Below, piece by piece: positions 1 to 57,627 of a stretch of DNA of 57,627 nt (positions are counted from its first letter, which is position 1; every line of letters starts with the position of its first letter). The notes below the pieces were generated by a model. That model had not been told where the DNA came from. It made no database searches and saw nothing but the letters and a program-made list of their open reading frames with translations. Source of the DNA: a virus. The stretch is from positions 1 through 57,627 of IMG/VR virus record IMGVR_UViG_3300031702_000006. One strand, written 5' to 3'. Both the position numbers and the translations under genes were made by a program.

Positions 1-32
1 TTGAGTTAACACAAGAGTCTATTGACTGGATA

Positions 33-6462: not shown

Positions 6463-9400
6463 TTAGTTTCTTGTTTTTTTAGATCTTGATTTTGATCTTG
6501 TTCTGTTTCTAGATTTAACCGTAGATTTTACTGACTTTTTAAATTTCTCTTTTTTAATATTCAATTCCCAAGCTGACCATCCTAAGGCCAAAGCTATTCT
6601 TTTATAATATTCAGTTTCTTCATTGCTAGCGTCGACTATATTGGTTATTTTCTTTACAGCTCTATCTAGTGGTACGTTTGTCAAGGCAGATATAACATTT
6701 GCATTAGCTAGATAAGCAGGGTTATCGATGGCCCAACCTTTAGCTCTCATTTCTTGTTTGTTCCAGGAATATGATCTACCAGCAGACTGTAATTTACCTA
6801 TTTTAGATGATATAGGTGGAGATATTTGTAACACTCCTTTAACTACAGCGTCTTGATATTTAGGTGATTTTTTGTCGGCTTCTTTAGCTAATCTTATAGC
6901 TGTATTTTTAACTACAGAAACTATAGCACCTCCAAGTCCAATACCTCGCAATATACTGTCAGACATACCATTTACTATGTTAAAGTATTTTTCGTCTTTC
7001 TTTTTGTCTTCTTCGTCATCATCAAAAGCAAGAGCAAATAATGCTTGCTGTAAAGCAGAGAATAAAAGGTTTTGTGCTACCCCATAGTATATGATCTTAG
7101 ATATGTTTGTTTTAGCATCTCCTCGACCATTCTTAAGGTCGCTAGCAGCTTTTTTAATTAGTCGTGCATATTGTGCTGGCGTATTAGCAAAAGCTAGCAC
7201 TACTCGCCCTAATGGACCAGCTTGTTGTTGGCTAATTTTATCAGGTCTGCTTGACTGTTGAGACTCTTCTGCAATTTCTCTAAAATCTCTAAACGCTTGA
7301 TCTTCAGCTTCAGTCTTTGTTAAACCTTCTTTCTGTAAAGCTTTAATTCTATTTCTATAAAACGAAGCTCCACCCGATGCAATAGCAAAACTATCTGCTA
7401 GTTGTGTTGGCAAGAAACCAGCTTTAAGTATTCCAGCAATTACATTTCTAGCACTATTTCCAGGACCCTTAGCCATATCAGCAATATCAGCTTCATTTAC
7501 ATTTAATTTTAAGCCGCTACGTCTATCTAATAAAAACGGTGAATTAAATAACTTTTTAAAATCACTCCAATATTGAGGTTGATTAGCAAATGCAACTCCA
7601 GCTTTTAATACGTTATTATCACTAAAGTTTATAAAGTTAACAGCTGATATAGTCTGCAATACAGCTGATCTAGTATTAAAAAACATAATAGCACCAACTG
7701 AATTTGTTAACCAGTCTGTAAACCTAGCAGTTAGATTATCAGAACCTGAATTAGTATTTCTACCAGTACTCATTCTTTGAAGCATATTCTCCATAGATTC
7801 TCTATAAGGCTTACCGTAAGCTGCTTCAAGTTTATTGAGATTTGTTTCAGAAAATATTTGATCTACATTTTGCTGCCACACTTCTAGATATTTATCTCTT
7901 TTAACTGTATTTAAAGCTTTTATAAAGTCTGTATCAATAGTTCCAGCAACCCAACCGCCATCAGGAGCAGCATACGCATCTCCTTTACCCATAGCTATTA
8001 ATTGATCTGCAAAAACAGTTAAATCAGCATCATTATTCACATAGTCAACTAATTCTTGTTGATCTTTTTGAGACAATCCAGGCACTGTCATACCTTGTTT
8101 ATTCCAAATAGCAACTCTTACAGCTTGCTCTTTAGTGAAGTCACTATCTTTTATTTTTTTACGTAAGTTTTTAGGTACAATTTTTAAAGCTTTTTTAAGG
8201 CCTTTAAAGTCTTCCATCAATGTAACTCTATCGTTGGCTAAGTTTTCCATTGCTCTTGCAAATGGATTAAGCAAATGAGCTTTATACCAAGCCATTTGAG
8301 CATCTCCAACGTCACCTTTTCCTAAAGTAGAGTATAATAAACCTACAAAGTCTTCAGCAGACGGTGGAATAAAGAAGTTAAATCTACCTTTATTAGCTCC
8401 AGCAACCTCAGCTTTAACTCTAGCATAAGTTTTATCTGATGCAATACCGGTTTTGTTCTCTATAATATCATTAAAATCTTTATCAAGATCTAATGATTTG
8501 CTAAATTTAAGTTCAGATTCTTGGCTATCGTTGTCTATTTCAGACATTTCGCTTAAAACGTTGTTGTTTATGAAATCACCTTTTAATTTAAATTCAGAAG
8601 GTAACATATTATTGTTAGACTTAGAAGCCTTTAATACAGAGTTATTTAAAGCTAAATAATTCTCTCCATACACAACACCTTTATCTTTACCTCCAATCGA
8701 TTCTAAGGTAAACATATTCTTGTATCCTTTAGTTAAAGCATTGAAGTATCTAGTTAAAGGACTCATTCCTAATTTAAACCAAGAAGGCATAGAAGCTTGA
8801 TGAACAATGTTTATTCTTTTGTCCATATCTCTAGGAATCATAGCAACCTGTTGACTTTCTTTCAACACCTCTAAGTCAACACCACCTTCATAGAAGTGCT
8901 TAACCATCTCCTTTAAAGTATAGAGTGATGGTAACATATGCTCAAAAACAGTTGCTGAATCGCTTTTGCCATTATAAAAATACTTAACATAAGCAACGCG
9001 TTTACCTAAAGCACTCATGTTAGATTTTAAAGCCATAAGAGCCATACCAAACTGCAGTTTGTCACCTTTACTTGATATAAAACTAAGATAATCAACCATA
9101 GCATCAAAACCTTCTCCTGCTTCTTTTTTTCTATCACCATACTCAGCTTCTACAGTTTCTCTTTTGAGATTATTTGATTGAGAAAAAGTTTTAATTTTAG
9201 CTTTAAGTTCAGCTTGATTTTTAAATTGTTTTACCCCGTTAATTAAAACGTTAACAGGAACAACTCCAGTTCCGGTTTTTCTATACTTTATTATAATATC
9301 TTTATTTTTTAAAGCTCTGTTTGTAGCTTTAAACCAATCTAAAGATCCAGCATAACCTTGATATCTACCGTCACCTATTTTACCCGCACTAGTGTGATAA

Positions 9401-12400
9401 TCTTTGTGGAATTTTAAAATACTTATAATTCCATCTATATCTCCTAGTTTTTTTATTTGATATAACTGATATTCATGTTGTGTTTTTCTAAATTTATTTA
9501 AAAATTTAGGATCATCAAAAGCACTTCCTGGGTTTATATCAATACCAAGTAAAGCTTTTAATGTTATAGCGCTTAAAGCTTGTTCTATCTGTTCGTTAGT
9601 CACTTCACCAAAATCACTCTCAGTTACAAGTTGTTTTTCTAGATCAACAATAAACTTTTTAGCAGGAGAAGTTAATTCTTTAGCATATTTACCTATAGTT
9701 TCGTCAGACACGCCAGTATCTTCAAGCACATCACTAAGTATTAAGCGCATACTCTTAACGCTGCGGTCGGAAGATACAAATCTCTGTATTATCTCACCTT
9801 GCTCTTGTTTAACTAAGTTAAGTTGTTTTTTAGTTAAATTAGATTTACTAAATTTTAAAGTAGGCTGTTCTTTTGCGGTTTGTTCTGGTTTGTACATTTC
9901 AAAACCAATCTCATCTACAACTCCATCTGATCCGTAATCAAACGTTTCCGCAGTCCAGCCTAATTCTTTAGATAGTTTATCTAATAGAACGTCATAAAGC
10001 TTAACTCTACTAGTTTCACTAGTTAAAGCATTAAAACGAACAGTAGCTATGTTTGGATTTGATTTTATTTCATCAATCACACCATTGTAAATAATACTCA
10101 CAGCTTTAAACTGATCTCCTTTACCTGTTAATTCTTGACTTCCATCTTGATCAAATTCTAATGAATAATCAGTAGGATCAGCATCTTGATCAGCTCCTAA
10201 GTCTCTAGCGTTTAATTGTACATTATATGTCTTATCGCCAATAGTAAAACTGGTATTACGATTCTCAGCTTCATCTATAGACCAATCTAAATCTTGTTTA
10301 GTACTTAGACTAAACTTTAAGGTAGGCGCTCTATCTATTTCTGATAATACTTTAGCTCTTTTAGCTGGTTCTATTTTACCTTCAGTAACTTCAGGAGCAG
10401 CATCTTTAACTAGAGTCTCAACTATTACAGATACTAAACCAGCTTTTCTTTTTTGAGTAAAAAACTTTTTAATTTGTTCTAATGTAGGAGTAGGTAGTTT
10501 TTCGTATACAAAAGCTCCAGACGTTAAGCTTTGATTTTTAGGCAATTTTCCTTGCTCTACAGCCTTTAATATTTCAGCTTTTTTAGTTAATCTTGGAAGT
10601 TGTTTAAAGAATATCTTATCTTCAACTTCTCGTTCTAATTTAACTAAATCTCTTTGAGAAAAATCTTTTAAAATATATTGAGAAGGATCTTTAGGGTTTA
10701 AATACTTATTTATAAATACATCGTCAATAGCTGTTTCTTTTCCTACAATTTTATAAATTTCTTTTTTTAGTCCACTTTCTCTTGCTTTTTTATTTACAAA
10801 AGCAACGAGCTTTTTATCAGGTAGATCTTTTTCTAATATTTCACTTGAAACTTTCTTAGCTAAGTCATATATTTTATCTCCTTGATTTATACCTAATTTT
10901 CCTCTAAGTTTAGACGTAGTTGATTTAATTTTAGTTTCGTCTATAGAAACTTCATCAGCAGCAATACCTTTAGCTTCAGTTACATCATCTGTAAATTCTT
11001 CACCTAGTATTCTTTTAGACGCTTCTATAGCTCTAGCTGGTAAAAACTTATTTATATAAGCAGCCAATGGAACACCAGACTCAGGTTTATATTCTTTAAT
11101 TAAATCTAATATACCACGTTTACCTGTTTCTACTTCGTCAGTAAGTAGCTGTCTGTCAAACCCTGGAGCTTGAGATCTTTTTTCTACTATTTTATTTGTT
11201 ATAGGTTTAAACTGCTCTATAATGTCAAAAGCAGCAGCTTCACCTTGTGTATCATATAGCTCTTGAACTTTAGTCGATGCTTCTTCAGATCTAGAATCTT
11301 TTATAATCTGTTCGTCTGTTTGAATTTTATCAGCAACTAATTTACCTTTAATTCCTTCAGCTGCTTTCACTTGAGCTTTAGTTAATCCTGTAGAGTCTAA
11401 GCTTTTATTATAATCTTTTATAAAATTATAAACATCTTTACCATTGTTAAACTTAACTTTAACTCCTAAAGCTTGAAGCGTTTTACGTATAACGTCACCA
11501 ATTTTAGTAAATACACCTTCATTAAACTTAATGTCTTCTGTTCTAATAGCATCAGAAAACAAAGTTAACACCTCTTCAGCTTGAACAGCTGATGGATCTG
11601 ATTTATACTGTTCTAGTCTTTTAGCAAAATTACTGTCTTTTACCTTGTTAGCATCTATGCTATTTATATATTCTTTTAAAGAATTACCTAAAGCTAATTG
11701 CGTTTCAGGACTATTACTAACGGTCTTAAACAGAAGTGCATGTAAAAACTCGTGAGTAGGCGCAGCTACAGCCATTTCTAAGTTAGCTATTTCTCTATTT
11801 ATGACTATTGTTTGTTTTCCTGTTTTTGAGTTTTGAATTATAAAACCTTGTTGACCAGACGCTTTTTTATCTTGCCCTTGTTCGTTTAAAAATGCTTCAG
11901 TTTCTTCAGTGCTAGCAAACTCCTGAACGTCTAAATCTTTAATGCTTTCAGCAGCTTTTTTAACTTTTTCAATTTCTTGGGTAACTGCTTTAGAACCAAC
12001 GTCTTTTAGACCTTTGTCTATTTCTTTTACTCTATCCGATTGCTCGATAGTTAAATTAGGCTCGCCAATTTGTTTTATTTCGTCTTTCAACTGTTTCTTT
12101 TCTTTCATCAATCGAACAGCTAAAGCTTGATCTTCTGTTGAAAGTCTTAAGGGTTTTATTTGGTTTGAAGCTCCTTGAGTAGTTATAAAATTTTTTTTAA
12201 TTTCATTACCTTGCTCTAATGTTATTTCTCCTTTTTTAACTTTTTTATCAACTTCATAATCAACTATTTCTTGACCATTTTTAAGAGAAGAAATAGCTAT
12301 TTGAGCTTCTTCTGTTGAAGCGTCAGCAGTGAAAGCGTCTGCAGCATTTTCATATTTAGTTTCTCTTATAGCATTTGAAGCAGCAACTTCATCTTGCAAA

Positions 12401-13749
12401 ACTCTAACGTTATTATAAAAGCTTTTTACACTAGTTGCTTTTCCATAAGGACCAATAATTCCTTCTTCAACGATATCTTTAACATCTAGTTCTTGACCAG
12501 AAGCTAACATACCAGATACTTCACCAGTCATACCAACTCCCATTTCAACTCCGCCTGAAGCAACGGCACTTCCTCCTACAGCTGCTATCTTAGTAGCTAG
12601 TCCTCCACCTCCTTTTTTCGCTAGGCTTTTCATTACTTTTTTACCTATTTTACCAGGTAAAAATGCAAGACCAGTTTCTATTGCCGCAACACCTAAACCT
12701 CTTGCGTTTGCTTTAGATATTAATTCATCTATAAAGTCTTCGTTGTCAAATTGCTTTATTATTTTATCTGTAGTAATTTCGCCTTTAATGTTTCCAATAA
12801 GATGTTCTGAAAAGAATAAGTTTTTTTCTAATTGCTTCATAGCACCAAAAGTAGCGCCTTTATATCCAAATCTAAGAAAACCACCAACACCACCTAAGCT
12901 TGAAACTATAGGGGCAGCTGGTCCAGTTAAGGTTCCAGCTAAAGCAGCTGTAGCTGCAGCTGTTCCTCCAGAAGCCAAACCATAACCTAAAGCTTCTTTT
13001 GCTACGCTTGGCACAACTATAGAACTCATTACTGTTGCCATAGATCCCATAGCCATAGGAAAACCAGCCTCTGGATTCATATACAAAGCCTTGGCTAATG
13101 CTACAAAATCATTATCACCTGTTTCTGAAAAAACTTTAAAAGAGTCGTTATAAGCTTTTACTGATTTTAACTCTTTATTATCTTTTATATTTGCATTAGC
13201 AATCATTAAAGCTTTAGCGCTTTCTTCGCTAACTCCTTCATCACTTTCAAATTCTTTCATTAAGTCAGAAGAAGCAATTTGCAAATCTATATTTTCAAGA
13301 CCCTCTAAGAAAGCTCTTGAAGATTGCTCCCATATGCTTTCATCTTTTTCACCATCAACGGTTTTACCTATAATATTCTCTACAGAAACATTTTCTTCAG
13401 ATTTATTCTCTAACTCCTCAAGTCTTTCTTTAGTGAAATTATCTTCTTTAGACATTTGCTTAGAGAACTTATTGTTCTGTAAGGATATTTTTTCATCTCT
13501 AGTTAAAGGAGTTTTGTATTTAGTTTCTTCTAATTCCAAAGAACCATCTTCCGATGGTGATTCCGTAATTTCGGACACTTCGGTTACATCCACAGACATG
13601 TCCTGATCTGTGGGAGTTGTCTTTCCCGCGTATTTATTTTTAAAATCATCTACAACAAATTGTATATCATCTTCAGACTCATTGTTAGAAATCATCTCTT
13701 GAACTATGCCATCTAACTGTTCTCTTTGTTCTTCTGAAAGTTCTGCCAT
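6463..13749 (-). CDS. Giant internal virion / multidomain ejection protein (2428 aa)
   Basis: By size and place, this is the large internal virion protein released with the DNA. Features seen: an acidic N-terminus; Ala/Gly-rich hydrophobic stretches around residues 220-430 that could cross a membrane; THEFLHA near residue 665, a HExxH zincin-like motif; a segment near 860-920 (LDLIKEYKPESGVPLAAYIN) that recalls sigma-factor region 2; three LKFSxS motifs at about 1141, 1295 and 1746 that may mark domain borders; and a very basic C-terminus (SRNRTRSKSRSKK). No DxDGD polymerase signature was found, unlike the giant proteins of gut crAss phages. It overlaps the upstream gene by one base. Exact activities are unproven; it resembles the phage polyvalent proteins. 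Confidence 0.7.
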   Translation of the reverse strand: MAELSEEQREQLDGIVQEMISNNESEDDIQFVVDDFKNKYAGKTTPTDQDMSVDVTEVSEITESPSEDGSLELEETKYKTPLTRDEKISLQNNKFSKQMSKEDNFTKERLEELENKSEENVSVENIIGKTVDGEKDESIWEQSSRAFLEGLENIDLQIASSDLMKEFESDEGVSEESAKALMIANANIKDNKELKSVKAYNDSFKVFSETGDNDFVALAKALYMNPEAGFPMAMGSMATVMSSIVVPSVAKEALGYGLASGGTAAATAALAGTLTGPAAPIVSSLGGVGGFLRFGYKGATFGAMKQLEKNLFFSEHLIGNIKGEITTDKIIKQFDNEDFIDELISKANARGLGVAAIETGLAFLPGKIGKKVMKSLAKKGGGGLATKIAAVGGSAVASGGVEMGVGMTGEVSGMLASGQELDVKDIVEEGIIGPYGKATSVKSFYNNVRVLQDEVAASNAIRETKYENAADAFTADASTEEAQIAISSLKNGQEIVDYEVDKKVKKGEITLEQGNEIKKNFITTQGASNQIKPLRLSTEDQALAVRLMKEKKQLKDEIKQIGEPNLTIEQSDRVKEIDKGLKDVGSKAVTQEIEKVKKAAESIKDLDVQEFASTEETEAFLNEQGQDKKASGQQGFIIQNSKTGKQTIVINREIANLEMAVAAPTHEFLHALLFKTVSNSPETQLALGNSLKEYINSIDANKVKDSNFAKRLEQYKSDPSAVQAEEVLTLFSDAIRTEDIKFNEGVFTKIGDVIRKTLQALGVKVKFNNGKDVYNFIKDYNKSLDSTGLTKAQVKAAEGIKGKLVADKIQTDEQIIKDSRSEEASTKVQELYDTQGEAAAFDIIEQFKPITNKIVEKRSQAPGFDRQLLTDEVETGKRGILDLIKEYKPESGVPLAAYINKFLPARAIEASKRILGEEFTDDVTEAKGIAADEVSIDETKIKSTTSKLRGKLGINQGDKIYDLAKKVSSEILEKDLPDKKLVAFVNKKARESGLKKEIYKIVGKETAIDDVFINKYLNPKDPSQYILKDFSQRDLVKLEREVEDKIFFKQLPRLTKKAEILKAVEQGKLPKNQSLTSGAFVYEKLPTPTLEQIKKFFTQKRKAGLVSVIVETLVKDAAPEVTEGKIEPAKRAKVLSEIDRAPTLKFSLSTKQDLDWSIDEAENRNTSFTIGDKTYNVQLNARDLGADQDADPTDYSLEFDQDGSQELTGKGDQFKAVSIIYNGVIDEIKSNPNIATVRFNALTSETSRVKLYDVLLDKLSKELGWTAETFDYGSDGVVDEIGFEMYKPEQTAKEQPTLKFSKSNLTKKQLNLVKQEQGEIIQRFVSSDRSVKSMRLILSDVLEDTGVSDETIGKYAKELTSPAKKFIVDLEKQLVTESDFGEVTNEQIEQALSAITLKALLGIDINPGSAFDDPKFLNKFRKTQHEYQLYQIKKLGDIDGIISILKFHKDYHTSAGKIGDGRYQGYAGSLDWFKATNRALKNKDIIIKYRKTGTGVVPVNVLINGVKQFKNQAELKAKIKTFSQSNNLKRETVEAEYGDRKKEAGEGFDAMVDYLSFISSKGDKLQFGMALMALKSNMSALGKRVAYVKYFYNGKSDSATVFEHMLPSLYTLKEMVKHFYEGGVDLEVLKESQQVAMIPRDMDKRINIVHQASMPSWFKLGMSPLTRYFNALTKGYKNMFTLESIGGKDKGVVYGENYLALNNSVLKASKSNNNMLPSEFKLKGDFINNNVLSEMSEIDNDSQESELKFSKSLDLDKDFNDIIENKTGIASDKTYARVKAEVAGANKGRFNFFIPPSAEDFVGLLYSTLGKGDVGDAQMAWYKAHLLNPFARAMENLANDRVTLMEDFKGLKKALKIVPKNLRKKIKDSDFTKEQAVRVAIWNKQGMTVPGLSQKDQQELVDYVNNDADLTVFADQLIAMGKGDAYAAPDGGWVAGTIDTDFIKALNTVKRDKYLEVWQQNVDQIFSETNLNKLEAAYGKPYRESMENMLQRMSTGRNTNSGSDNLTARFTDWLTNSVGAIMFFNTRSAVLQTISAVNFINFSDNNVLKAGVAFANQPQYWSDFKKLFNSPFLLDRRSGLKLNVNEADIADMAKGPGNSARNVIAGILKAGFLPTQLADSFAIASGGASFYRNRIKALQKEGLTKTEAEDQAFRDFREIAEESQQSSRPDKISQQQAGPLGRVVLAFANTPAQYARLIKKAASDLKNGRGDAKTNISKIIYYGVAQNLLFSALQQALFALAFDDDEEDKKKDEKYFNIVNGMSDSILRGIGLGGAIVSVVKNTAIRLAKEADKKSPKYQDAVVKGVLQISPPISSKIGKLQSAGRSYSWNKQEMRAKGWAIDNPAYLANANVISALTNVPLDRAVKKITNIVDASNEETEYYKRIALALGWSAWELNIKKEKFKKSVKSTVKSRNRTRSKSRSKKTRN

Positions 13750-49996: not shown

Positions 49997-50008
49997 ATAA
50001 TGTTTTTG

Positions 50009-50107
50009 TTAAATTGTAACTGGAATTGTACCTATATACATGTTAGTAACAGGTAGTATTCCGATATATATATTAGTTATTGGTTTTATACCTATTTTTA
50101 CCGCCAT
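50009..50107 (-). CDS. 32-residue repeat protein
   Basis: The translation is MAVKIGIKPITNIYIG, then ILPVTNMYIGTIPVTI: three near-copies of a roughly 10-residue unit IG-x2-P-V/I-T-x-x-Y. Such short strand repeats recur in small phage proteins beside fibres. It is the first gene of the late transcript, just upstream of the 846-residue fibre. The role is unknown; a fibre-tip or assembly peptide is possible. Confidence 0.55.
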   Translation of the reverse strand: MAVKIGIKPITNIYIGILPVTNMYIGTIPVTI

Positions 50108-50203
50108 AGTGTTGCTTGTTAGTTGTTATACTCTATATACTTACAGGTTTTACATGTGTTTTACTATTCTTACATAACCTAATACCGGTAATTTTACAAA
50201 ACA

Positions 50204-50247
50204 GTGACACTTGCCCCTTACTAGTAACCTTAACAGGCTAATGTCAC
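50204..50247. repeat. Hairpin repeat, copy A
   Basis: GTGACACT at 50204-50211 and TAACAGGCTAATGTCAC at 50231-50247 form a stem (GTGACA/TGTCAC, plus GCC/GGC). The same two parts recur at 56285-56330, with the 17-base part identical. This is one of the few long exact repeats in the noncoding part. Confidence 0.7.
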
Positions 50248-50527
50248 TAAAATATGCTATTATAGGGAAGTAAAGTCTTATACCCTATCTGCTTGACTGT
50301 CAGCCACTTACCAAAACGGTTTTCATTTAGCCCACGGCCCCACATTTTTCAGCATTTTGCCGAAACATTCCGGCTTTTACTAGCATATACCCCTAGTATT
50401 TCAGGCTTTACTATGCATAAACTATATTTATAGTTGCATATATACTATAACATATCATTATACTATTACTATAGGCTATATCTATACTATATTACTATTA
50501 TATAACTATTATTTATAGCTAAAGCAT

Positions 50528-50557
50528 ATGACAGTGTGTCATGACATTGTGTCACTG
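50528..50557. promoter_or_regulatory. Dyad cluster, possible operator
   Basis: ATGACA-GTG-TGTCAT (50528-50542), the palindrome TGTCATGACA (50537-50546), and CAGTG (50532-50536) facing CACTG (50553-50557) overlap in 30 bases. The half-site TGTCA also occurs in both hairpin repeats. Looks like a protein binding site; the binder is unknown, but the HTH gene at 56324 is a candidate. Confidence 0.45.
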
Positions 50558-50606
50558 CATTATACATTAACATACTATTATATAAATAAATATATACACA
50601 CCTTTA

Positions 50607-50640
50607 TACAAACTAAATACGATATCATATGGATAATATA
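50607..50640 (+). promoter_or_regulatory. Bipartite element, copy 1
   Basis: TACAAACTAAATACGA (50607-50622), 8 bases, then GGATAATATA (50631-50640). First of seven copies; lies upstream of the 58-residue gene at 50684. An ATG follows at once but is closed by TAA. Confidence 0.75.
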
Positions 50641-50683
50641 TATGTAAGCAAGCAACGAAGCTCTTACGCCTAATATCACTACA

Positions 50684-50860
50684 ATGACTGTACAAAACTT
50701 AGCTAAGCTAGAATTAGCGAAAATGAATGAAAGTTATTATGGTAGCGAAAAGCAGATAGCTAAAGAAATAGTTATAATGAAAGCTAGTAAGATAGAAATG
50801 CTTTACAATGAAACCATAGAAGAATGGCTTTACAAAGTAAGTACGAGTATAGCTGGATAA
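50684..50860 (+). CDS. Small helical protein, first gene of the plus block (58 aa)
   Basis: Reads MTVQNLAKLELAKMNESYYG, then SEKQIAKEIVIMKASKIEML and YNETIEEWLYKVSTSIAG. Mostly helical, slightly basic. Its last ten codons and stop lie inside bipartite element copy 7 (50831-50865). I do not recognise it. Position suggests an early host-takeover peptide. Confidence 0.55.
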   Translation: MTVQNLAKLELAKMNESYYGSEKQIAKEIVIMKASKIEMLYNETIEEWLYKVSTSIAG

Positions 50861-50865
50861 TACTA
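50831..50865 (+). promoter_or_regulatory. Bipartite element, second in order, inside a CDS end
   Basis: TACAAAGTAAGTACGA (50831-50846), 8 bases, then GGATAATACTA (50855-50865). One base differs from consensus in the first half. It encodes the end of the 58-residue protein and precedes the tRNA-like structure at 50916. Confidence 0.75.
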
Positions 50866-50915
50866 GTGAGAGTTTTATAGAATTGATTGCCTCTAAAATA
50901 TTAATCAATGAAAAA

Positions 50916-51023
50916 TGAGTGAATGGATTAGTGTAAACCACGATAGCTAGTAAGTTTGAGAAACTTGCATATAAAAAATAGTTCCGTCGATGTGTCCAGA
51001 AAGTTCGATTCTTTCTCACTCAA
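50916..51023 (+). ncRNA. tRNA-like structure, 108 nt, atypical middle
   Basis: TGAGTGA (50916-50922) pairs with TCACTCA (51016-51022), with A as the discriminator. A full T arm precedes it: GAAAG, loop TTCGATT, CTTTC (50999-51015). A hairpin TAAGT-TTGAGAA-ACTTG inside has a 7-base loop that would place GAG (Leu) as anticodon with T before it. The stretch between D- and T-arm regions is about 58 bases, too long even for a class II tRNA, and position 8 is not T. It may be an unusual tRNA-Leu, a tRNA with an insert, or a tRNA mimic. Confidence 0.5.
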
Positions 51024-51037
51024 CTAAAATTATAAAT

Positions 51038-51172
51038 ATGAATGCAATAGAATTTGTAGGCGAAATGGATCGTCTAGCAGAAGTACACTTCGGCGAATTT
51101 GGTTATGCTACATGTAGCAGTGATGAACAAAAAGTAGTTATTAAACTGTTATTACACAACTTAAAAAAGTAA
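51038..51172 (+). CDS. Small hypothetical protein (44 aa)
   Basis: MNAIEFVGEMDRLAEVHFGE, then FGYATCSSDEQKVVIKLLLH and NLKK. Helical, acidic in the first half. The ATG at 51038 follows a TATAAAT-type leader and is preferred over an earlier in-frame ATG that overlaps the tRNA-like structure. Function unknown. Confidence 0.5.
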   Translation: MNAIEFVGEMDRLAEVHFGEFGYATCSSDEQKVVIKLLLHNLKK

Positions 51173-51174
51173 AT

Positions 51175-51306
51175 ATGAATAAAGTAAACAAGTTAATACA
51201 AACCTATTCAAACCCAAATATGAATAGAGAAAAGCTAAGTTATAAAATAAAAGACTATTATAACTTAAATGAAAGCGAAAGATTACATTTTTTATACTGG
51301 ATATAA
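51175..51306 (+). CDS. Small hypothetical protein (43 aa)
   Basis: MNKVNKLIQTYSNPNMNREK, then LSYKIKDYYNLNESERLHFL and YWI. Basic start, helical centre and an aromatic end. The stop overlaps the next start as TAATG. Unrecognised. Confidence 0.45.
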   Translation: MNKVNKLIQTYSNPNMNREKLSYKIKDYYNLNESERLHFLYWI

Positions 51307-51485
51307 TGATTAAAGAATTTGAATGGAACAAAGATACTTTAGAGTATTTTAGAAAGCATAACAAAATAGATTATGATAAGCAAAGTGAAATGAGAATGTT
51401 TGTAGAAAACAATTGTGTTTTAGAAGACGGTGAAAGCTATGAAGATTTAATAAAAGATTTAGAACTACAAAGTAAATACGAATAA
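51306..51485 (+). CDS. Small acidic protein (59 aa)
   Basis: MIKEFEWNKDTLEYFRKHNK, then IDYDKQSEMRMFVENNCVLE and DGESYEDLIKDLELQSKYE. The last five residues QSKYE and stop are encoded by the 16-base half of a bipartite element, in a different frame from other copies. Highly charged, helical. Function unknown. Confidence 0.5.
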   Translation: MIKEFEWNKDTLEYFRKHNKIDYDKQSEMRMFVENNCVLEDGESYEDLIKDLELQSKYE

Positions 51486-51500
51486 AAAAGGATAATACTA
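51466..51500 (+). promoter_or_regulatory. Bipartite element, third in order
   Basis: TACAAAGTAAATACGA (51466-51481), 8 bases, then GGATAATACTA (51490-51500). It overlaps the end of the 59-residue gene and is 3 bases before the ATG of the next gene at 51503. Confidence 0.75.
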
Positions 51501-51502
51501 AT

Positions 51503-51631
51503 ATGAATAATATATACGACAAGAAGTTTGAAATCTACTTAGTAAAAAAAGGTTTTAACTTAGATACTATTAGCTTACAAGAATGCTTAACACAAATCAA
51601 AATATGGAAAAGGAATATCGCAAGCGTATAG
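51503..51631 (+). CDS. Small basic protein (42 aa)
   Basis: MNNIYDKKFEIYLVKKGFNL, then DTISLQECLTQIKIWKRNIA and SV. Begins 13 bases after the GG of a bipartite element. It overlaps the next gene by 28 bases in a different frame. Unrecognised. Confidence 0.45.
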   Translation: MNNIYDKKFEIYLVKKGFNLDTISLQECLTQIKIWKRNIASV

Positions 51632-51723
51632 GTTATTTATCTACAAGAAGTAGATTTTGCTTAACCAGTAGAAAACAATTATTACAGTTACAAAAAGAAT
51701 TAAAAACATTATTATGCAAATAG
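51604..51723 (+). CDS. Small very basic protein (39 aa)
   Basis: MEKEYRKRIGYLSTRSRFCL, then TSRKQLLQLQKELKTLLCK. Arg/Lys-rich and helical; may bind nucleic acid. Overlaps both neighbours, which is common in this block. Confidence 0.4.
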   Translation: MEKEYRKRIGYLSTRSRFCLTSRKQLLQLQKELKTLLCK

Positions 51724-51944
51724 AAATAGACACTGTAGACTTACAGAACACACTCGAGCAATTATATGATCGCAAAGTAAAATTAGTTGCGTATGCGAGC
51801 GCTGATGGATTAGATACATTAGTACTTGAAGGAAATGAGGAAGATCTTTTTAATTTCTACTTAGAATCTTTCAATCCATTTAATGAATGGACTAATACAG
51901 ATGTTGTAAGATCAGAGTTTTTTGCTCACATACTTACAAAGTAA
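51714..51944 (+). CDS. Small acidic protein (76 aa)
   Basis: Starts MQIEIDTVDLQNTLEQLYDR, followed by strand LVAYASADGLDTLVLEGNEE and an acidic helix. It resembles a small ferredoxin-like or DNA-mimic fold in composition, but no match is claimed. Its stop codon lies within the next bipartite element (…THIL-T-K-stop). Confidence 0.5.
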   Translation: MQIEIDTVDLQNTLEQLYDRKVKLVAYASADGLDTLVLEGNEEDLFNFYLESFNPFNEWTNTDVVRSEFFAHILTK

Positions 51945-51970
51945 ATACGATAATAAACGGATAATATAAT
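51935..51970 (+). promoter_or_regulatory. Bipartite element, fourth in order
   Basis: TACAAAGTAAATACGA (51935-51950), 8 bases, then GGATAATATAAT (51959-51970). Includes the stop codon of the 76-residue gene; the next ATG is at 51982 after an AAACAAACAAT leader. Confidence 0.78.
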
Positions 51971-51981
51971 AAACAAACAAT

Positions 51982-52233
51982 ATGAATCAAATGCAAACAC
52001 CAAACGAGTACTTACATCAAATGCAAGAAGCATTAAGCGATTATGAGGTTAACGAAGATAATCATTACGACTATTTACATGAAGTCATAGACACTATGGT
52101 GATATATACATCGACTTGTAAACAAATTATAAACGATTTAGATTACGATATATTTCAAGAACACGAATTTGGTCAAGCTAAAAGTTACGAACAAGCAGCA
52201 TTTTGCGCACTATACGATTTATACACAGCATAA
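51982..52233 (+). CDS. Small acidic protein (83 aa)
   Basis: MNQMQTPNEYLHQMQEALSD, then YEVNEDNHYDYLHEVIDTMV, ends AAFCALYDLYTA. Strongly acidic and helical; reminiscent of phage anti-host acidic proteins, but no family is recognised. It follows a bipartite element and an A/C leader. Confidence 0.5.
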   Translation: MNQMQTPNEYLHQMQEALSDYEVNEDNHYDYLHEVIDTMVIYTSTCKQIINDLDYDIFQEHEFGQAKSYEQAAFCALYDLYTA

Positions 52234-52234
52234 T

Positions 52235-52396
52235 ATGACAGACAAACAAATAGAAATACTAGACAGAACAGACAAGATCAAGCTACTAAACATAGATGGC
52301 AAAGTAAATTACATTTATAATGGCTTTAGAGAGCATTTTCCTAAAGAAACACTAGATGAAGCAAGAGAATATTTTAAATCAAATCTAACCAAGTAA
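52235..52396 (+). CDS. Small hypothetical protein (53 aa)
   Basis: MTDKQIEILDRTDKIKLLNI, then DGKVNYIYNGFREHFPKETL, ends ARE-like EYFKSNLTK. Start is ATG 52235, one base after the previous stop. The MTDKQ start is shared with the gene at 54787, which may point to a common origin of the leader. Function unknown. Confidence 0.5.
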   Translation: MTDKQIEILDRTDKIKLLNIDGKVNYIYNGFREHFPKETLDEAREYFKSNLTK

Positions 52397-52397
52397 T

Positions 52398-52496
52398 ATG
52401 AAAAACGAAGACATAATAGCGCAATACAATATGCTACTAGATGCAGAGCTAGAAATTTACTTACAACAACAACAATACGAAAACTTATATGAGTAG
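52398..52496 (+). CDS. Very small acidic protein (32 aa)
   Basis: MKNEDIIAQYNMLLDAELEI, then YLQQQQYENLYE. Helical and Gln-rich. It is supported only by packing: one base after the upstream stop and overlap with a possible 21-residue frame at 52489. Confidence 0.35.
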   Translation: MKNEDIIAQYNMLLDAELEIYLQQQQYENLYE

Positions 52497-52554
52497 AAAA
52501 TTTAAACTAAGACACAGTAACTTTTTTAACAAACCAAAAACCAGAACAATATGA
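52489..52554 (+). CDS. Possible 21-residue basic peptide
   Basis: MSRKFKLRHSNFFNKPKTRT-I. Overlaps the stop of the previous frame and ends at the ATG of the next gene (ATGA). Too short to be sure; listed because it fills a gap in an otherwise closely packed operon. Confidence 0.25.
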   Translation: MSRKFKLRHSNFFNKPKTRTI

Positions 52555-52775
52555 ATATGACAGAACTTAAACAATACATGATAGATAACAAGCGAATCAA
52601 AGTAGCTCAATGGAATAAAGATCGTCAAGGCAATCACTGTCAAGGCTTTACACAAAAAGAGTTTGAACAGTCTATGGAAGTTGATAGAATTAAATCTAGA
52701 ACGCGTAGAACCCACTCTAAAGGCAATCACTGGAATTTTAATGATACTAAAAACAGAGAGCTTTTTACAAAGTAA
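52551..52775 (+). CDS. Small basic protein (74 aa)
   Basis: MNMTELKQYMIDNKRIKVAQ, then WNKDRQGNHCQGFTQKEFEQ and KSRTRRTHSKGNHWNFNDTK. Contains two GNH segments (QGNHCQGF, KGNHWNF). Basic; may bind nucleic acid. Ends LFTK with the stop in the next bipartite element. Confidence 0.5.
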   Translation: MNMTELKQYMIDNKRIKVAQWNKDRQGNHCQGFTQKEFEQSMEVDRIKSRTRRTHSKGNHWNFNDTKNRELFTK

Positions 52776-52801
52776 ATACGAGTACAAGTGGATAATATAA
52801 T
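52766..52801 (+). promoter_or_regulatory. Bipartite element, fifth in order
   Basis: TACAAAGTAAATACGA (52766-52781), 8 bases, then GGATAATATAAT (52790-52801). Includes the stop of the 74-residue gene; the next ATG is at 52811. Confidence 0.78.
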
Positions 52802-52810
52802 AAACAATAT

Positions 52811-53155
52811 ATGAGAATCAAAAGAAATTTAATGAATCAAATGATAGCTGAAGACGTAATGTCAGGCGTGTGGCCAGCTTATCACAACAGTAAAAACGGT
52901 AATAAGTGTTGGAGCTTATACAGAGGCTCTAAAGGGCTTTATTCAGAAGCCAATACTAATAGTCCTAAGAACACTTTAGTCTTACACAACGGCTCTCAAA
53001 GCTCTTACGTTTCACTATCGTGTGACAGCTTAGAGATGGCTGAGTATATAACTAATCACGAAATGAACTTCACTAAAACTTTAAAGCGTGACAAAGCAAG
53101 GTCAGAGTATCTAGCTAGCGAAGAAGGTAAATGGGGTAGACAAGACAGCTTTTAA
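52811..53155 (+). CDS. Hypothetical protein (114 aa)
   Basis: Basic start MRIKRNLMNQMIAEDVMSGV, then WPAYHNSKNGNKCWSLYRGS, strands (NTLVLHNGSQSSYVSLSCDS) and a helical, charged end. An alpha/beta soluble protein that I do not recognise. It has its own bipartite element and precedes the tRNA pair. Confidence 0.55.
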   Translation: MRIKRNLMNQMIAEDVMSGVWPAYHNSKNGNKCWSLYRGSKGLYSEANTNSPKNTLVLHNGSQSSYVSLSCDSLEMAEYITNHEMNFTKTLKRDKARSEYLASEEGKWGRQDSF

Positions 53156-53161
53156 CGTCAG

Positions 53162-53278
53162 CGCAAGGTAGTTTATAAAAGGTAAAACGTTATAGCTTAT
53201 GATGCACGATATGTGAATTACGTAATAGCATAGAGAGGCTAGGTTATAATCTAGCGGGTTCAAATCCCGCTCTTGCGC
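53162..53278 (+). ncRNA. tRNA-like gene, 117 nt, with an expanded centre
   Basis: CGCAAGG (53162-53168) pairs with TCTTGCG (53271-53277), TA follows as positions 8-9, the D arm is GTTT-ATAAAAGGTA-AAAC, and the T arm is GCGGG-TTCAAAT-CCCGC. These ends are fully tRNA-like. The middle is about 65 bases instead of about 23. TTATA after the D arm can pair with TATAA before the T arm, leaving a 50-base loop; that would equal a normal anticodon stem with about 43 extra bases. The insert contains the palindrome ATTACGTAAT. It may be a tRNA with an insertion, a pseudogene, or a tRNA mimic. No anticodon can be assigned. Confidence 0.55.
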
Positions 53279-53283
53279 CTAAA

Positions 53284-53354
53284 GCGAGATTGGCAGAATG
53301 GTTATGCATTGCCCTTCCAAGGCAACCAAGCAGGTTCGATTCCTGTATCTCGCT
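53284..53354 (+). tRNA. tRNA-Gly(TCC)
   Basis: Complete cloverleaf: acceptor GCGAGAT/ATCTCGC, TG at 8-9, D arm GCA/TGC, anticodon arm TTGCC-CTTCCAA-GGCAA with anticodon TCC, T arm GCAGG-TTCGATT-CCTGT, discriminator T. CCA is not encoded. It reads GGA codons, frequent in this AT-rich genome. It starts 5 bases after the tRNA-like gene. Confidence 0.92.
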
Positions 53355-53359
53355 CAACT

Positions 53360-53395
53360 TACAAACTAAATACGAACACAATAGGATAATATAAT
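53360..53395 (+). promoter_or_regulatory. Bipartite element, sixth in order
   Basis: TACAAACTAAATACGA (53360-53375), 8 bases, then GGATAATATAAT (53384-53395). This copy follows tRNA-Gly directly, not a CDS end, so the sequence is kept without any coding reason. The next ATG is at 53409. Confidence 0.78.
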
Positions 53396-53408
53396 AAAAC
53401 AAAACAAT

Positions 53409-53750
53409 ATGACAACATTAGAAAAATTTCAAGAAGTAGCAAACATCGAATTTATTCAAACGCCTTCGCTTGCAGATATAGAGATCGGCGAATTAAATAC
53501 AGCTGACGGCTACGAATTATTTTATGTAACGCAAGACATTCAAAATTTAAACTACGAAAACGAATTGTTCTACTACAAGCCAGATTTTGATACTATCATG
53601 AGCGAAATATTAAATGCTAGAATATCATCAAATGTAGTCACAGTTTTTGTATACGATGTTGATGACCACTTTGACGAGTTCTACATGCTTGACTATATTG
53701 AAAGTGAAATAGATGAAGAAGAATTTGAAAAGTTCACAGAAAATGCATAA
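53409..53750 (+). CDS. Acidic protein (113 aa)
   Basis: MTTLEKFQEVANIEFIQTPS, then strands (VVTVFVYDVDDHFDEFYMLD) and a very acidic tail (EIDEEEFEKFTENA). Highly acidic with alternating strand-helix pattern. DNA mimicry is possible in view of charge, but not shown. It is followed by a small HTH gene overlapping its end. Confidence 0.5.
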   Translation: MTTLEKFQEVANIEFIQTPSLADIEIGELNTADGYELFYVTQDIQNLNYENELFYYKPDFDTIMSEILNARISSNVVTVFVYDVDDHFDEFYMLDYIESEIDEEEFEKFTENA

Positions 53751-53853
53751 GGCTTGGCGATTATACTTGCTCGATAACAAGAGCTTGACAGAGATAAGCA
53801 AAATGCTTAACATCACTAAAAACAAACTTATTAACGAATACGGATTAAAATGA
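53743..53853 (+). CDS. Mini helix-turn-helix protein (36 aa)
   Basis: MHKAWRLYLLDNKSLTEISK, then MLNITKNKLINEYGLK. The segment LTEISKMLNITKNKLINEYG reads as a helix-turn-helix (small residue, turn, recognition helix), as in the sigma-4 or resolvase type. It overlaps both neighbours (8 and 4 bases). It could bind DNA as a dimer or be a subunit of another factor. Confidence 0.5.
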   Translation: MHKAWRLYLLDNKSLTEISKMLNITKNKLINEYGLK

Positions 53854-54047
53854 ACAAATTAAAGAAAGTAAACAAAACAAGAATCAAACTTAATGGTAAA
53901 TCTTACAAAGGCTATTTAGTCGGCGATCTACCTCCTACATTTGCTTATATTACAGCAGAAGACATAAACGAGTTTGGCGAAGTAGAAAACACTCCAGGTA
54001 TTAAATCTTGGTTTAATCACAAGGGTTTAACATACATAGGACAATGA
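53850..54047 (+). CDS. Small basic protein (65 aa)
   Basis: MNKLKKVNKTRIKLNGKSYK, then GYLVGDLPPTFAYITAEDIN and GIKSWFNHKGLTYIGQ. Strand-rich with a basic N-terminus, like a small SH3/OB-type fold. Function unknown. Overlaps the upstream HTH gene by 4 bases (ATGA). Confidence 0.5.
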   Translation: MNKLKKVNKTRIKLNGKSYKGYLVGDLPPTFAYITAEDINEFGEVENTPGIKSWFNHKGLTYIGQ

Positions 54048-54130
54048 GAAAGTTAATATTCCAACTGTACAACGATAATATAATAACAATTGAAGTAGCA
54101 AATCTACTCATAGACCAACACGAAAAATGA
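54044..54130 (+). CDS. Very small protein (28 aa)
   Basis: MRKLIFQLYNDNIITIEVAN, then LLIDQHEK. Supported only by 4-base ATGA overlaps at both ends, which is the habit of this operon. No function. Confidence 0.35.
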   Translation: MRKLIFQLYNDNIITIEVANLLIDQHEK

Positions 54131-54291
54131 AACAATTCGCGCAAGAGAGTTATGATAAATTAAAATCTGTGAAAAGACATAGAATTAATTTCTTTTTAGA
54201 AGAAAACATAAAAGAAATCTTTGGCAAATGTACTAAAGAATTAAAACTACTTGTCTTACAAGACATGATAAGCGACACAAAAAAAACATAA
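54127..54291 (+). CDS. Small helical protein (54 aa)
   Basis: MKQFAQESYDKLKSVKRHRI, then NFFLEENIKEIFGKCTKELK and LLVLQDMISDTKKT. Helix-rich, basic and acidic in turn. Not recognised. Starts inside the previous stop (ATGA) and ends one base before the next ATG. Confidence 0.45.
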   Translation: MKQFAQESYDKLKSVKRHRINFFLEENIKEIFGKCTKELKLLVLQDMISDTKKT

Positions 54292-54292
54292 T

Positions 54293-54511
54293 ATGACACA
54301 AAAAGAAAGAAAAGACAGAATATACAACAAAGCGTTTGCAATGATAGCAACGTTAAAGATAGAGATTAAATCTTTAGATGAGACAATCCCTTACTTTGCT
54401 TATACTCAAGATATGATTGATGGGCAAATAAACTTTAAAGAGCGTGAATTAGAACTATGGAATCATATAGCTTTTTTAAACGAACAAGACGAAGTCTGTC
54501 AGATTTACTAA
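54293..54511 (+). CDS. Small helical protein (72 aa)
   Basis: MTQKERKDRIYNKAFAMIAT, then LKIEIKSLDETIPYFAYTQD and FKERELELWNHIAFLNEQDE. Long charged helices; probable coiled-coil hairpin. Function unknown. It is followed by tRNA-Gln 7 bases later. Confidence 0.5.
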   Translation: MTQKERKDRIYNKAFAMIATLKIEIKSLDETIPYFAYTQDMIDGQINFKERELELWNHIAFLNEQDEVCQIY

Positions 54512-54518
54512 TTTAAAT

Positions 54519-54591
54519 TGGTCTATGGTGTAACTGGCAACACGTCTGGTTTTGGTCCAGAAGAGTCTAGGTTCGAGCCCTAGTAGACCAA
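54519..54591 (+). tRNA. tRNA-Gln(TTG)
   Basis: Complete cloverleaf: acceptor TGGTCTA/TAGACCA, TG at 8-9, D arm GTG/CAC, anticodon arm TCTGG-TTTTGGT-CCAGA with anticodon TTG, variable AGAGT, T arm CTAGG-TTCGAGC-CCTAG, discriminator A. It reads CAA, the Gln codon favoured here. CCA is not encoded. The CDS frames that run through it are shadows. Confidence 0.92.
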
Positions 54592-54611
54592 CTAACATTA
54601 AACTATATACT

Positions 54612-54761
54612 ATGGCAGGAAATAAATACAATCCACCTAAAAGGCCTTATAAGCCTTATACATACACGCTAAACTATATTAACGAACAAGGTTCTAATGA
54701 AGCTGTTCAAGGTACAGCTAAGCAGATAATGCTACATATTCTTAATCAACATACAAAGTAA
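54612..54761 (+). CDS. Small basic protein (49 aa)
   Basis: MAGNKYNPPKRPYKPYTYTL, then NYINEQGSNEAVQGTAKQIM and LHILNQHTK. Pro/Tyr-rich basic start, then a strand and helix. The start at 54612 avoids the tRNA. Its stop falls within the last bipartite element (HTK-stop). Confidence 0.5.
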   Translation: MAGNKYNPPKRPYKPYTYTLNYINEQGSNEAVQGTAKQIMLHILNQHTK

Positions 54762-54785
54762 ATACGAACAATAAAGGATAATATA
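54752..54785 (+). promoter_or_regulatory. Bipartite element, seventh in order
   Basis: TACAAAGTAAATACGA (54752-54767), 8 bases, then GGATAATATA (54776-54785). The ATG of the next gene is only 11 bases after the GG, so an mRNA starting here would be nearly leaderless. Confidence 0.78.
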
Positions 54786-56284: not shown

Positions 56285-56330
56285 GTGACACTAGGCTACT
56301 AATCAAAGAAGAGTAACAGGCTAATGTCAC
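56285..56330. repeat. Hairpin repeat, copy B, overlapping a start codon
   Basis: GTGACACT (56285-56292) and TAACAGGCTAATGTCAC (56314-56330) form the same stem as copy A. The ATG of the HTH gene (56324) is inside the 3' arm, so the stem would hide it in the mRNA. Confidence 0.7.
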
Positions 56331-56941
56331 ACCGAAACATAGAACATTTAAACAATAATCGTATTATATACAGAAGACTACCTGTGTTAGATAAACCTAG
56401 TCATTCATTTGACTGGGGTTATTACTTTGAAGATGGTACGCATGAGTTTTATGATTTATTTAGAAGTAAAGCATTGATAAACACATACAAATCTTTAAGA
56501 TGGCACTTAAGAGTTATATGGCATTTAAATCCTGAGTTGACGCTTGATAAGTTTATTAACTTATGTAAGTTCATAGCAGATAAAAACAACGGATTTACTA
56601 CATTCACAATAAAGCCAGACAAATTACTGCATGTAATAAACGATATTAACAAATCAGATTTAGAAGAACCTCCTAATAATAAAGAAAGAAAAATAATATT
56701 TAAAGATTATTGCGGTCTTGATACTGAAGCGAAGCTAAAAGTAGTTGGCTCATTAAGCGGTAGAAGAAGTACAACTAGTGAGACCGATATATACGAGGCT
56801 ATGTTAATCATCAATCACAATAATAAGCGGATAACTATGCCTAGTTTGGCGAGCATGTTGAAATGCTCAGTAAGAACAATACACAGAAAAATGAATGATA
56901 AATTAAAACAAGAAAAAACAATTTTAAATGAAAAAGTATAA
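56324..56941 (+). CDS. Helix-turn-helix DNA-binding protein (205 aa)
   Basis: The C-terminal region (about 168-198: ITMPSLASMLKCSVRTIHRK) is a clear helix-turn-helix (LASMLKCSVRTIHRKM). The N-terminal two thirds are alpha/beta with an aromatic region (SFDWGYYFEDGTHEFYDLFR), and a basic loop after 140 (GSLSGRRSTTSETDIYEAML). It may be a transcription regulator or a replication initiator. The start codon lies in a hairpin repeat that also occurs in the divergent control region, which hints that it binds both. It overlaps the sigma factor by 14 bases. Confidence 0.6.
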   Translation: MSHRNIEHLNNNRIIYRRLPVLDKPSHSFDWGYYFEDGTHEFYDLFRSKALINTYKSLRWHLRVIWHLNPELTLDKFINLCKFIADKNNGFTTFTIKPDKLLHVINDINKSDLEEPPNNKERKIIFKDYCGLDTEAKLKVVGSLSGRRSTTSETDIYEAMLIINHNNKRITMPSLASMLKCSVRTIHRKMNDKLKQEKTILNEKV

Positions 56942-57627
56942 CGTACAAAACTATATAAGGTACAAAGAGGATGTTAAAATATCTCAGCCTAATTTAAAAG
57001 ATCTTACTGGTTATACTAGAGACGAACTTATAGTTAAATTTCTACCTTTAGTAGAAAACATAGCACGTAAGTTTTCAACCACTCAGCAAGCATCTGGCGT
57101 GATGACTATAACAGATCTAATTCAAGAAGGCAGTGCTGGTTTAATAAAATCAGTAGACAAGCTAGACTATGATATGCTAGGCGAGTCAGAAGACAAAGAA
57201 AAAACTCTTAAATCTTTCTTTTCAAAGAGAATTAAAGGATCTATTAGAAGAGCTGTAGATACTAACAGAGGCGATATAAGAATACCAGAGCATAAGATGA
57301 ATGAGATTCGCAAGAATCCTAATGATGAAGCTATGGTAAGCATGTTCTTTAATAGTATATTCTTAAGTATAGACTCTAAGCCTTATGATGACGATGAAGA
57401 TTTAACGTATCAAGTTCCTGATAATTCAGAGCCATACAATATAGCTCTAATGAATTCGTATTTAAAAGGTTTAATGCAAAAGCATTTAAATAAAAACGAA
57501 TATGAAGTACTTAGATTATCTTATGGATTAGACTGTGATAAGCATTCGGCAAAAGAAATTGCGTTCCTTTTAAACATCAAAGGAGCAAGCGATTACGTAA
57601 GAATATCAGAGCTAAAGAAGCAAGCTG
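56928..57627 (+). CDS. Sigma-70 family RNA polymerase sigma factor (3' end cut by the window)
   Basis: At least 233 residues. Region 2 is visible at 37-118: LPLVENIARKFS, then ITDLIQEGSAGLIKSVDKLD, then FFSKRIKGSIRRAV. RGDIRIPEHKMNEIRK (114-129) fits the start of region 3. A long acidic linker (DDDEDLTYQVPDNSEPY) follows, and region 4 begins at about 187 (NKNEYEVLRLSYGLD, then SAKEIAFLLNIKGASDYVRI with the helix-turn-helix). The frame is open to the edge, so the C-terminus lies outside. It would redirect host RNA polymerase to phage promoters, possibly those of the bipartite element. No region 1.1 is present, as in small phage or alternative sigma factors. Confidence 0.85.
   Translation, partial: MKKYNVQNYIRYKEDVKISQPNLKDLTGYTRDELIVKFLPLVENIARKFSTTQQASGVMTITDLIQEGSAGLIKSVDKLDYDMLGESEDKEKTLKSFFSKRIKGSIRRAVDTNRGDIRIPEHKMNEIRKNPNDEAMVSMFFNSIFLSIDSKPYDDDEDLTYQVPDNSEPYNIALMNSYLKGLMQKHLNKNEYEVLRLSYGLDCDKHSAKEIAFLLNIKGASDYVRISELKKQA

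What the first reader, a model, noticed from the sequence alone, without database searches (positions are those of the whole stretch)
50607..54785. Seven copies of a bipartite 34-bp element with an exactly fixed 8-bp spacer
The halves TACAAA(G/C)TAAATACGA and GGATAATA(T/C) occur together at 50607, 50831, 51466, 51935, 52766, 53360 and 54752. All seven have precisely 8 unrelated bases between the halves. Six lie 11-53 bases before an ATG and one 50 bases before a tRNA-like gene. The spacer bases vary freely, so the halves are under selection. It does not match the Bacteroidetes TTTG/TAnnTTTG promoter or a plain sigma-70 promoter. It could be a phage-specific promoter, an RNA processing site or a regulator site. 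No copy was noticed in the late or nrd blocks.
Basis: seen in the sequence. Interest (0 to 1): 0.82.

Follow-up and report, generated by a model that had tools for sequence, protein, structure and literature searches.

The report
Early-gene promoter family of flavobacterial phages
The seven repeated DNA signals are almost certainly start sites for copying the early genes of a large, uncultured group of aquatic phages; each phage carries its own matched version, about a quarter of the genes seem to begin exactly where the RNA begins, and which protein recognises the signal is still open.

Summary
In detail: all seven copies are exact, none is expected by chance, and none lies in the late or nrd blocks. 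The element is not private to this genome. Its 24-base pattern hits at least 119 viral stretches (456 distinct sites aligned). It was recovered in 82 of 85 relatives that carry the phage sigma gene, with identical spacing in 81. GATAATA hardly varies; the left part differs between genomes but is uniform within each.

Position fixes the reading. In 268 sites with a leader, the base 13 after the first G of GGATAATA is a purine in 97%; in 103 of 456 sites the ATG begins exactly there. So GATAAT is a -12..-7 box, the left block is -37..-22, and about a quarter of the genes look leaderless.

It is a sigma-type early promoter unlike the known flavobacterial classes. No phage RNA polymerase was found, so host core polymerase should use it. 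The specificity factor is unsettled: the phage sigma always co-occurs, but its recognition helix tracks a second, late promoter class found here (TGTAAA-N14-TGTAANTAT; 54 of 55 genomes) better than the early element. Promoter: about 0.9. Phage-encoded reader: about 0.5.

The parts
50607..50640 (+). Early element 1; predicted RNA start near 50644
   Evidence: start-site register
50831..50864 (+). Early element 2; predicted RNA start near 50868; followed by a tRNA-like RNA
51466..51499 (+). Early element 3; predicted RNA start 51503 = A of the ATG of ORF 51503-51631 (leaderless)
51935..51968 (+). Early element 4, before ORF 51982; predicted RNA start near 51972
52766..52799 (+). Early element 5, before ORF 52811; predicted RNA start near 52803
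53360..53393 (+). Early element 6, just after tRNA-Gly and before ORF 53409; predicted RNA start near 53397
54752..54785 (+). Early element 7, before ORF 54787 (in-frame ATG also at 54802) and the ligase-HTH-sigma operon; predicted RNA start near 54789
56324..56941 (+). 205-aa HTH protein, conserved next to sigma in element-bearing relatives; possible partner factor
56928..57627 (+). Phage sigma-70-family factor (regions 2 and 4), cut by the end of the record
50137..50165 (-). Late promoter copy, AGTAAA-N14-TGTAAGTAT (1 mismatch), upstream of the first late-strand gene

Best explanation
The 34-mer is the core of a sigma-type promoter for the early genes of a large clade of flavobacterial phages. 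GATAAT is its -10 box (-12..-7), TACAAAC a -35-like box (-37..-31), and TAAATACGA (-30..-22) an extra spacer block kept in this sub-clade. RNA starts about 7 bases after GATAAT, often on the A of the start codon (leaderless mRNA). No phage RNA polymerase is evident, so host core polymerase is used; host sigma-A boxes are not what is conserved, so a dedicated specificity factor is needed. The likeliest one is phage-encoded: the co-conserved sigma (56928-end), perhaps with the adjacent HTH protein. The same sigma serves, more clearly, a separate late promoter. Shown: the element, fixed spacing, register against start codons, confinement to the early strand, co-occurrence with sigma. Inferred: start site, polymerase, reader. 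How the first sigma molecules arise (carried in the virion, or leaky transcription) is not known.
For: Exact copies and no chance matches. 456 distinct sites with near-invariant TACGA and GATAATA. Purine at +1 in 97% of leadered sites and 103 ATGs exactly at +1. Element recovered in 82 of 85 sigma-bearing contigs, each genome with its own uniform left block; 320 on the sigma strand against 2. 29 of 30 near-complete element-bearing records encode the sigma, while MW202828, elemoA and phi38:1 have neither. Sigma family and fold. Recognition-helix residue 230 covaries with base -30 (p=0.0035, 0.016 and 9e-7 on three trees). No T7-like or crAss-type polymerase found. Host sigma-A boxes at chance in element-bearing genomes but raised in MW202828 and elemoA.
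Against: Residue 230 ranks only 5th of 147 sigma columns for the early element, but first for the late promoter (54 of 55 genomes); no neighbouring protein tracks the early element specifically. The sigma lies in the operon that the element would drive, so it cannot start the cycle unaided. GATAATA stays constant while the sigma changes type. Exact copies stand before chromosomal genes of Flavobacteriaceae without this sigma. Sigma and element share ancestry, so co-occurrence is confounded. Six sites have an ATG upstream of the predicted start.
Confidence: 0.5

Rival explanations
1. Early promoter read by host RNA polymerase with a host-encoded factor (an alternative sigma, or an activator on the left block). 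The phage sigma serves only the late promoter, the classic host-early, phage-late order. Differences between phages reflect different hosts.
For: Early genes must be read before phage proteins exist. The sigma matches the late promoter best. Exact copies occur before chromosomal genes in Flavobacteriaceae that lack the sigma.
Against: None of the six flavobacterial promoter classes of PMC9723704 (sigma-A variants, sigma-54, TAnnTTGY, ECF) fits. Chromosomal copies are very rare: six loci in 84,980 species genomes, 2 of 52 genomes in one family. The left block changes faster than a conserved host sigma should allow. Sigma-less relatives do not use it.
Confidence: 0.25
2. Early promoter read through a virion-carried factor, either a polymerase or a specificity protein encoded in the late region, as crAss-like phages and N4 use a virion RNA polymerase for early genes.
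For: Element only before early genes. Distant kinship with crassviruses (muzzle domain), whose phi14:2 member uses a virion polymerase early (PMC10136315). Reader not found among early-region proteins; late-region proteins were not tested for covariation.
Against: No polymerase found: giant virion protein without PDB relative, conserved DxDxD or polymerase-like fold (the model is of low confidence). The -35/-10 layout with a start 7 bases on is that of a sigma holoenzyme.
Confidence: 0.15
3. Not a promoter: an RNA processing or translation-initiation signal inside longer early transcripts.
For: The elements form an array before consecutive genes and often overlap the stop codon of the gene before.
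Against: ATG peak exactly where a -12..-7 box would place RNA start, plus a purine there in leadered sites. Fixed distance of two boxes in the -35/-10 register. A second class with the same logic stands before the late genes.
Confidence: 0.06

Closest known systems
Promoters of phage-encoded sigma factors: Salmonella phage 7-11 (gp47) and phiEco32 (gp36) (PMC8948821, PMC4331800)
   Same: Phage with a sigma-70-family gene, divergent early and late gene blocks, and repeated phage-specific promoter elements. The 7-11 late consensus GTAAtg-16-aCTA is bipartite and recalls the TGTAAA-N14-TGTAANTAT late class found here.
   Different: In 7-11 the early promoters are host sigma-70 promoters; here the early genes have their own phage-specific class and host sigma-A boxes are not enriched. 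The early consensus is different and longer. No binding or transcription data exist here.
Bacteroidetes sigma-A promoter TTTG / TAnnTTTG (PMC6847099, PMC9723704)
   Same: A box at -12..-5 that precedes the RNA start, A-rich leaders and no Shine-Dalgarno sequence.
   Different: Here G at -12 and ATAATA instead of TAnnTTTG, a 16-bp upstream block, and about a quarter leaderless against 5.5% in F. psychrophilum.
T7-class phage promoter (TAATACGACTCACTATAGGG, general knowledge)
   Same: A TACGA block followed 8-9 bases later by GG; exact repeated copies.
   Different: The start-site signature lies 13 bases after the first G, not at it; the spacer is not conserved; no T7-like polymerase was found.
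Early genes of crAss-like phage phi14:2, read by a virion RNA polymerase (PMC10136315)
   Same: Distant virion kinship and a separate early gene block.
   Different: No polymerase gene recognised; promoter laid out like that of a sigma holoenzyme.

Membership tests
Promoter of a phage-encoded sigma (7-11 / phiEco32 type) | Phage encodes a sigma-70-family factor | tested here: met
   29 of 30 near-complete element-bearing records
Promoter of a phage-encoded sigma (7-11 / phiEco32 type) | Conserved -10 (and -35) boxes with RNA start 6-9 bases downstream | tested here: inconclusive
   Boxes and a start-site signature from sequence only; no RNA ends mapped
Promoter of a phage-encoded sigma (7-11 / phiEco32 type) | Element changes together with the sigma's DNA-reading residues | tested here: inconclusive
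   Early element: residue 230 ranks 5th of 147 or 3rd of 135. Late promoter: first, 54 of 55
Promoter of a phage-encoded sigma (7-11 / phiEco32 type) | Transcribed in vitro by host core polymerase plus the phage sigma | not testable with these tools
   needs biochemistry
Bacteroidetes sigma-A promoter | TAnnTTTG at -12..-5 with TTTG near -33 | tested here: not met
   Not in the consensus; no enrichment of such boxes in element-bearing genomes
Sigma-70 consensus promoter | TTGACA-16..18-TATAAT | tested here: not met
   ACAAAC-18-GATAAT; the -10 matches 5 of 6, the -35 does not
T7-class single-subunit polymerase promoter | Phage encodes a T7-like RNA polymerase | tested here: inconclusive
   0 of 30 records with PF00940, but the family rang in no control genome either
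T7-class single-subunit polymerase promoter | RNA starts at the GG after the recognition block | tested here: not met
   Purine and ATG peaks lie 13 bases after the first G
crAss/N4-type virion polymerase promoter | Virion polymerase with catalytic aspartates | tested here: not met
   No conserved DxDxD in the giant virion protein; no PDB or fold match

The most novel reading that the evidence does not exclude
A three-block early promoter (-35 TACAAAC, -30..-22 TAAATACGA, -10 GATAATA) read by host core polymerase through a phage-specific factor other than the phage sigma, giving a two-class, partly leaderless transcription programme in a widespread flavobacterial phage clade. Exact copies in host chromosomes would then be host genes wired to switch on during infection.
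Probability: 0.15. Interest if true: 0.8.

Novelty: new variant of a known kind. Interest (0 to 1): 0.62.

Why it matters
It gives a sharply defined, testable pair of promoters (early and late) for a widespread, mostly uncultured clade of phages of aquatic flavobacteria, for which I found no published account of gene control in the papers held. Each genome carries its own version, so there are dozens of natural promoter-factor pairs with which to study how a sigma factor and its promoters evolve together. The apparent leaderless start of about a quarter of the early genes is unusual for flavobacteria. The element also lets early genes, and so candidate host-takeover genes, be picked out directly in metagenomes.

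Tried and rejected
(1) T7-like polymerase starting at GG: the TACGA-GG resemblance is real, but purine and ATG peaks lie 13 bases on and no polymerase was found. (2) Giant virion protein as crAss-type polymerase: no PDB relative, catalytic motif or fold match. (3) Host sigma-A, sigma-54 or TAnnTTGY boxes as the real promoters: no enrichment. (4) Correlation of overall sigma divergence with element divergence: none; a weak test, because most motif divergence sits in one clade. (5) HTH protein as reader by covariation: no special signal. (6) Small proteins whose divergence follows the element (103 aa, 76 aa, 83 aa): taken as lineage signal. (7) BLAST hits in Polaribacter phage P12002L and Flavobacterium phage 1/32: no element on inspection. 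(8) A k-mer search for a late motif in six genomes was weak; aligning the first late gene of 63 contigs revealed it. (9) Terminators and sigma-70 sites in the early region: at chance level.
Full report
OBSERVATION. No other site with up to 3 mismatches exists in the window, and shuffles give none. By matrix, the seven score 38.8-40.3 bits and the next site 11.8. All lie on the + strand between 50.6 and 54.8 kb, upstream of a DNA ligase (55049), an HTH protein (56324) and a sigma factor (56928). The late structural block is on the - strand; the nrd genes are at the other end. The window is a linear 57.6-kb viral record, probably incomplete.

WHAT PHAGE. TerL and portal match Flavobacterium elemo phages, Cellulophaga phi38:1 and relatives, and best the uncultured MW202828 (62%). 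A virion protein carries a crassvirus muzzle domain. MW202828, elemoA and phi38:1 have no element.

DISTRIBUTION. With up to 4 mismatches these hold 456 distinct sites. Consensus: TACAAAcTAAATACGA-N7-T-GGATAATA. ACA, TACGA and GATAATA are nearly invariant.

REGISTER. Count from the T of TACAAA as 0. Position 37 (13 after the first G of GGATAATA) is a purine in 97% of the 268 sites whose ORF starts at least 22 bases past that G, and position 36 is mostly a pyrimidine. In 103 of 456 sites the ATG begins exactly at 37 (none at 36, one at 38). If 37 is +1, GATAAT falls at -12..-7 and the left block at -37..-22, the layout of a sigma holoenzyme promoter, and about a quarter of the genes would be leaderless, against 5.5% in F. 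psychrophilum (PMC9723704). Six sites have an ATG at position 31, upstream of this +1; two of them have an in-frame ATG further on.

DIVERGED VERSIONS. Loci were fetched by the sigma protein. Many carry the canonical element. Others carry another version at the same distance from GATAATA, for example TATAAGTTTRAYACGA, TACAAAAATAATACGT, TCGAAACATAATACGA or CACGGACTTA. In all, 82 of 85 contigs gave an element; the other three have only about 5 kb upstream and 2-4 candidate sites. In one (L258) the left block is shifted by 1 bp. With each genome's own matrix, all 555 scoring sites are at the same offset (the matrices were built at that offset). Within a genome the left block is uniform; between genomes it drifts. 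Around sigma, 320 elements are on its strand and 2 on the other; 17 lie downstream of sigma, many about 2.1 kb on, near the replication genes.

CO-OCCURRENCE WITH SIGMA. 29 of 30 near-complete element-bearing records encode the sigma. The exception, G016, is a linear record whose end lies close to its elements, so it does not show loss. The three complete relatives without the element lack the sigma. Shared ancestry confounds this. The protein has sigma-70 regions 2 and 4 and its model matches bacterial sigma-A chains.

POLYMERASE. No T7-like polymerase was found (weak, since the family rang in no control). The giant virion protein has no PDB relative, no conserved DxDxD, and its conserved 650-aa end gives an all-helical, low-confidence model (pLDDT 58) without a fold match. 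Host core polymerase is the simplest candidate. Host sigma-A boxes are at chance in element-bearing genomes, but raised in MW202828 and elemoA; they are not enriched before or in the early block.

SECOND PROMOTER CLASS. Upstream of the first late gene, on the opposite strand, 46 of 63 contigs have TGTAAA-N14-TGTAANTAT with at most 1 mismatch of 14 specified bases (mean 0.07 in shuffles). The best gap is 14 in all 46, tied with 19 in one. In ten contigs the ATG is exactly 15 bases after the TGTAA start. The window copy is at 50165-50137 (-). MW202828, elemoA and phi38:1 lack it. Its start site is less clear than that of the early class.

WHICH PROMOTER DOES THE SIGMA READ? Over sigma columns and early-element positions the strongest pair is residue 230 (Q or E; L251 numbering), in the predicted recognition helix of region 4, with base -30 (T or A). 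Tests that allow for phylogeny keep the link (p=0.0035, 0.016 and 9e-7 on three trees), but the column ranks 5th of 147. The same residue predicts the variable base of the late -10 box in 54 of 55 genomes and ranks first of 135 columns (LR 29.3, p=7e-6). Among neighbouring protein families the four best columns for that late base are all in sigma; for the early element nothing stands out. So the sigma is tied well to the late promoter, and to the early element by co-occurrence and weaker covariation. These columns were found by scanning; the p-values are not corrected for that. A region-4 residue tracking a -10 base is more likely a marker of sigma type than a direct contact.

CHROMOSOMAL COPIES. 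A scan of 84,980 species genomes gave six loci: five in Flavobacteriaceae or Flavobacteriales assemblies and one in a Prochlorococcus assembly, possibly chance or attached phage DNA. L158 (four copies) looks like a phage contig and L153 may be one. Three are on large contigs: L155 before a TerB-like gene near parA/parB, and L156/L157 before a short ORF with a signal-like start. Those genomes lack the phage sigma. They may be phage remnants, host promoters, or host genes that answer to infection; they are the main support for a host reader.

VERDICT. Sigma-type early promoter family (about 0.9). Read by host core polymerase with a phage-encoded specificity factor (about 0.5 for the whole statement), a host factor (0.25) or a virion-carried factor (0.15). 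A new variant of a known kind: phage-specific promoters in phages that have their own sigma. I found no published description of the element, but the paper library is partial.

Noticed in passing
window 50137-50165 (-); upstream of the first late gene in 46 of 63 related contigs: A separate late promoter class, TGTAAA-N14-TGTAANTAT, whose variable base follows sigma residue 230 in 54 of 55 genomes.
   Followed up: partly
window 50914-51030 (+); L117, and shorter forms in L051, L063, L086, L089, L119: tRNA-like RNAs (T-arm GTTCGATTC plus acceptor) follow the element in several genomes but are not called by ARAGORN; in the window Rfam at E<=1 does not call it either.
   Followed up: partly
L155 323-354, L156 149-180, L157 4274-4305 (Flavobacteriaceae/Flavobacteriales MAG contigs): Exact early elements before chromosomal genes (a TerB-like gene; a short MKTKITIATLLFGF ORF) in genomes without the phage sigma.
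   Followed up: partly
window about 50000-50600 and the matching intergenic regions of relatives: Other words are strongly enriched between the divergent early and late blocks (GGCTATTGTCAC, AGTGTGACA, CCCCCTCC); perhaps a replication origin.
   Followed up: no
window 6463-13749 (-): 2428-aa virion protein whose relatives range from 2265 to 3344 aa; only a short middle part and the last 650 aa are conserved, and no known fold was found.
   Followed up: partly
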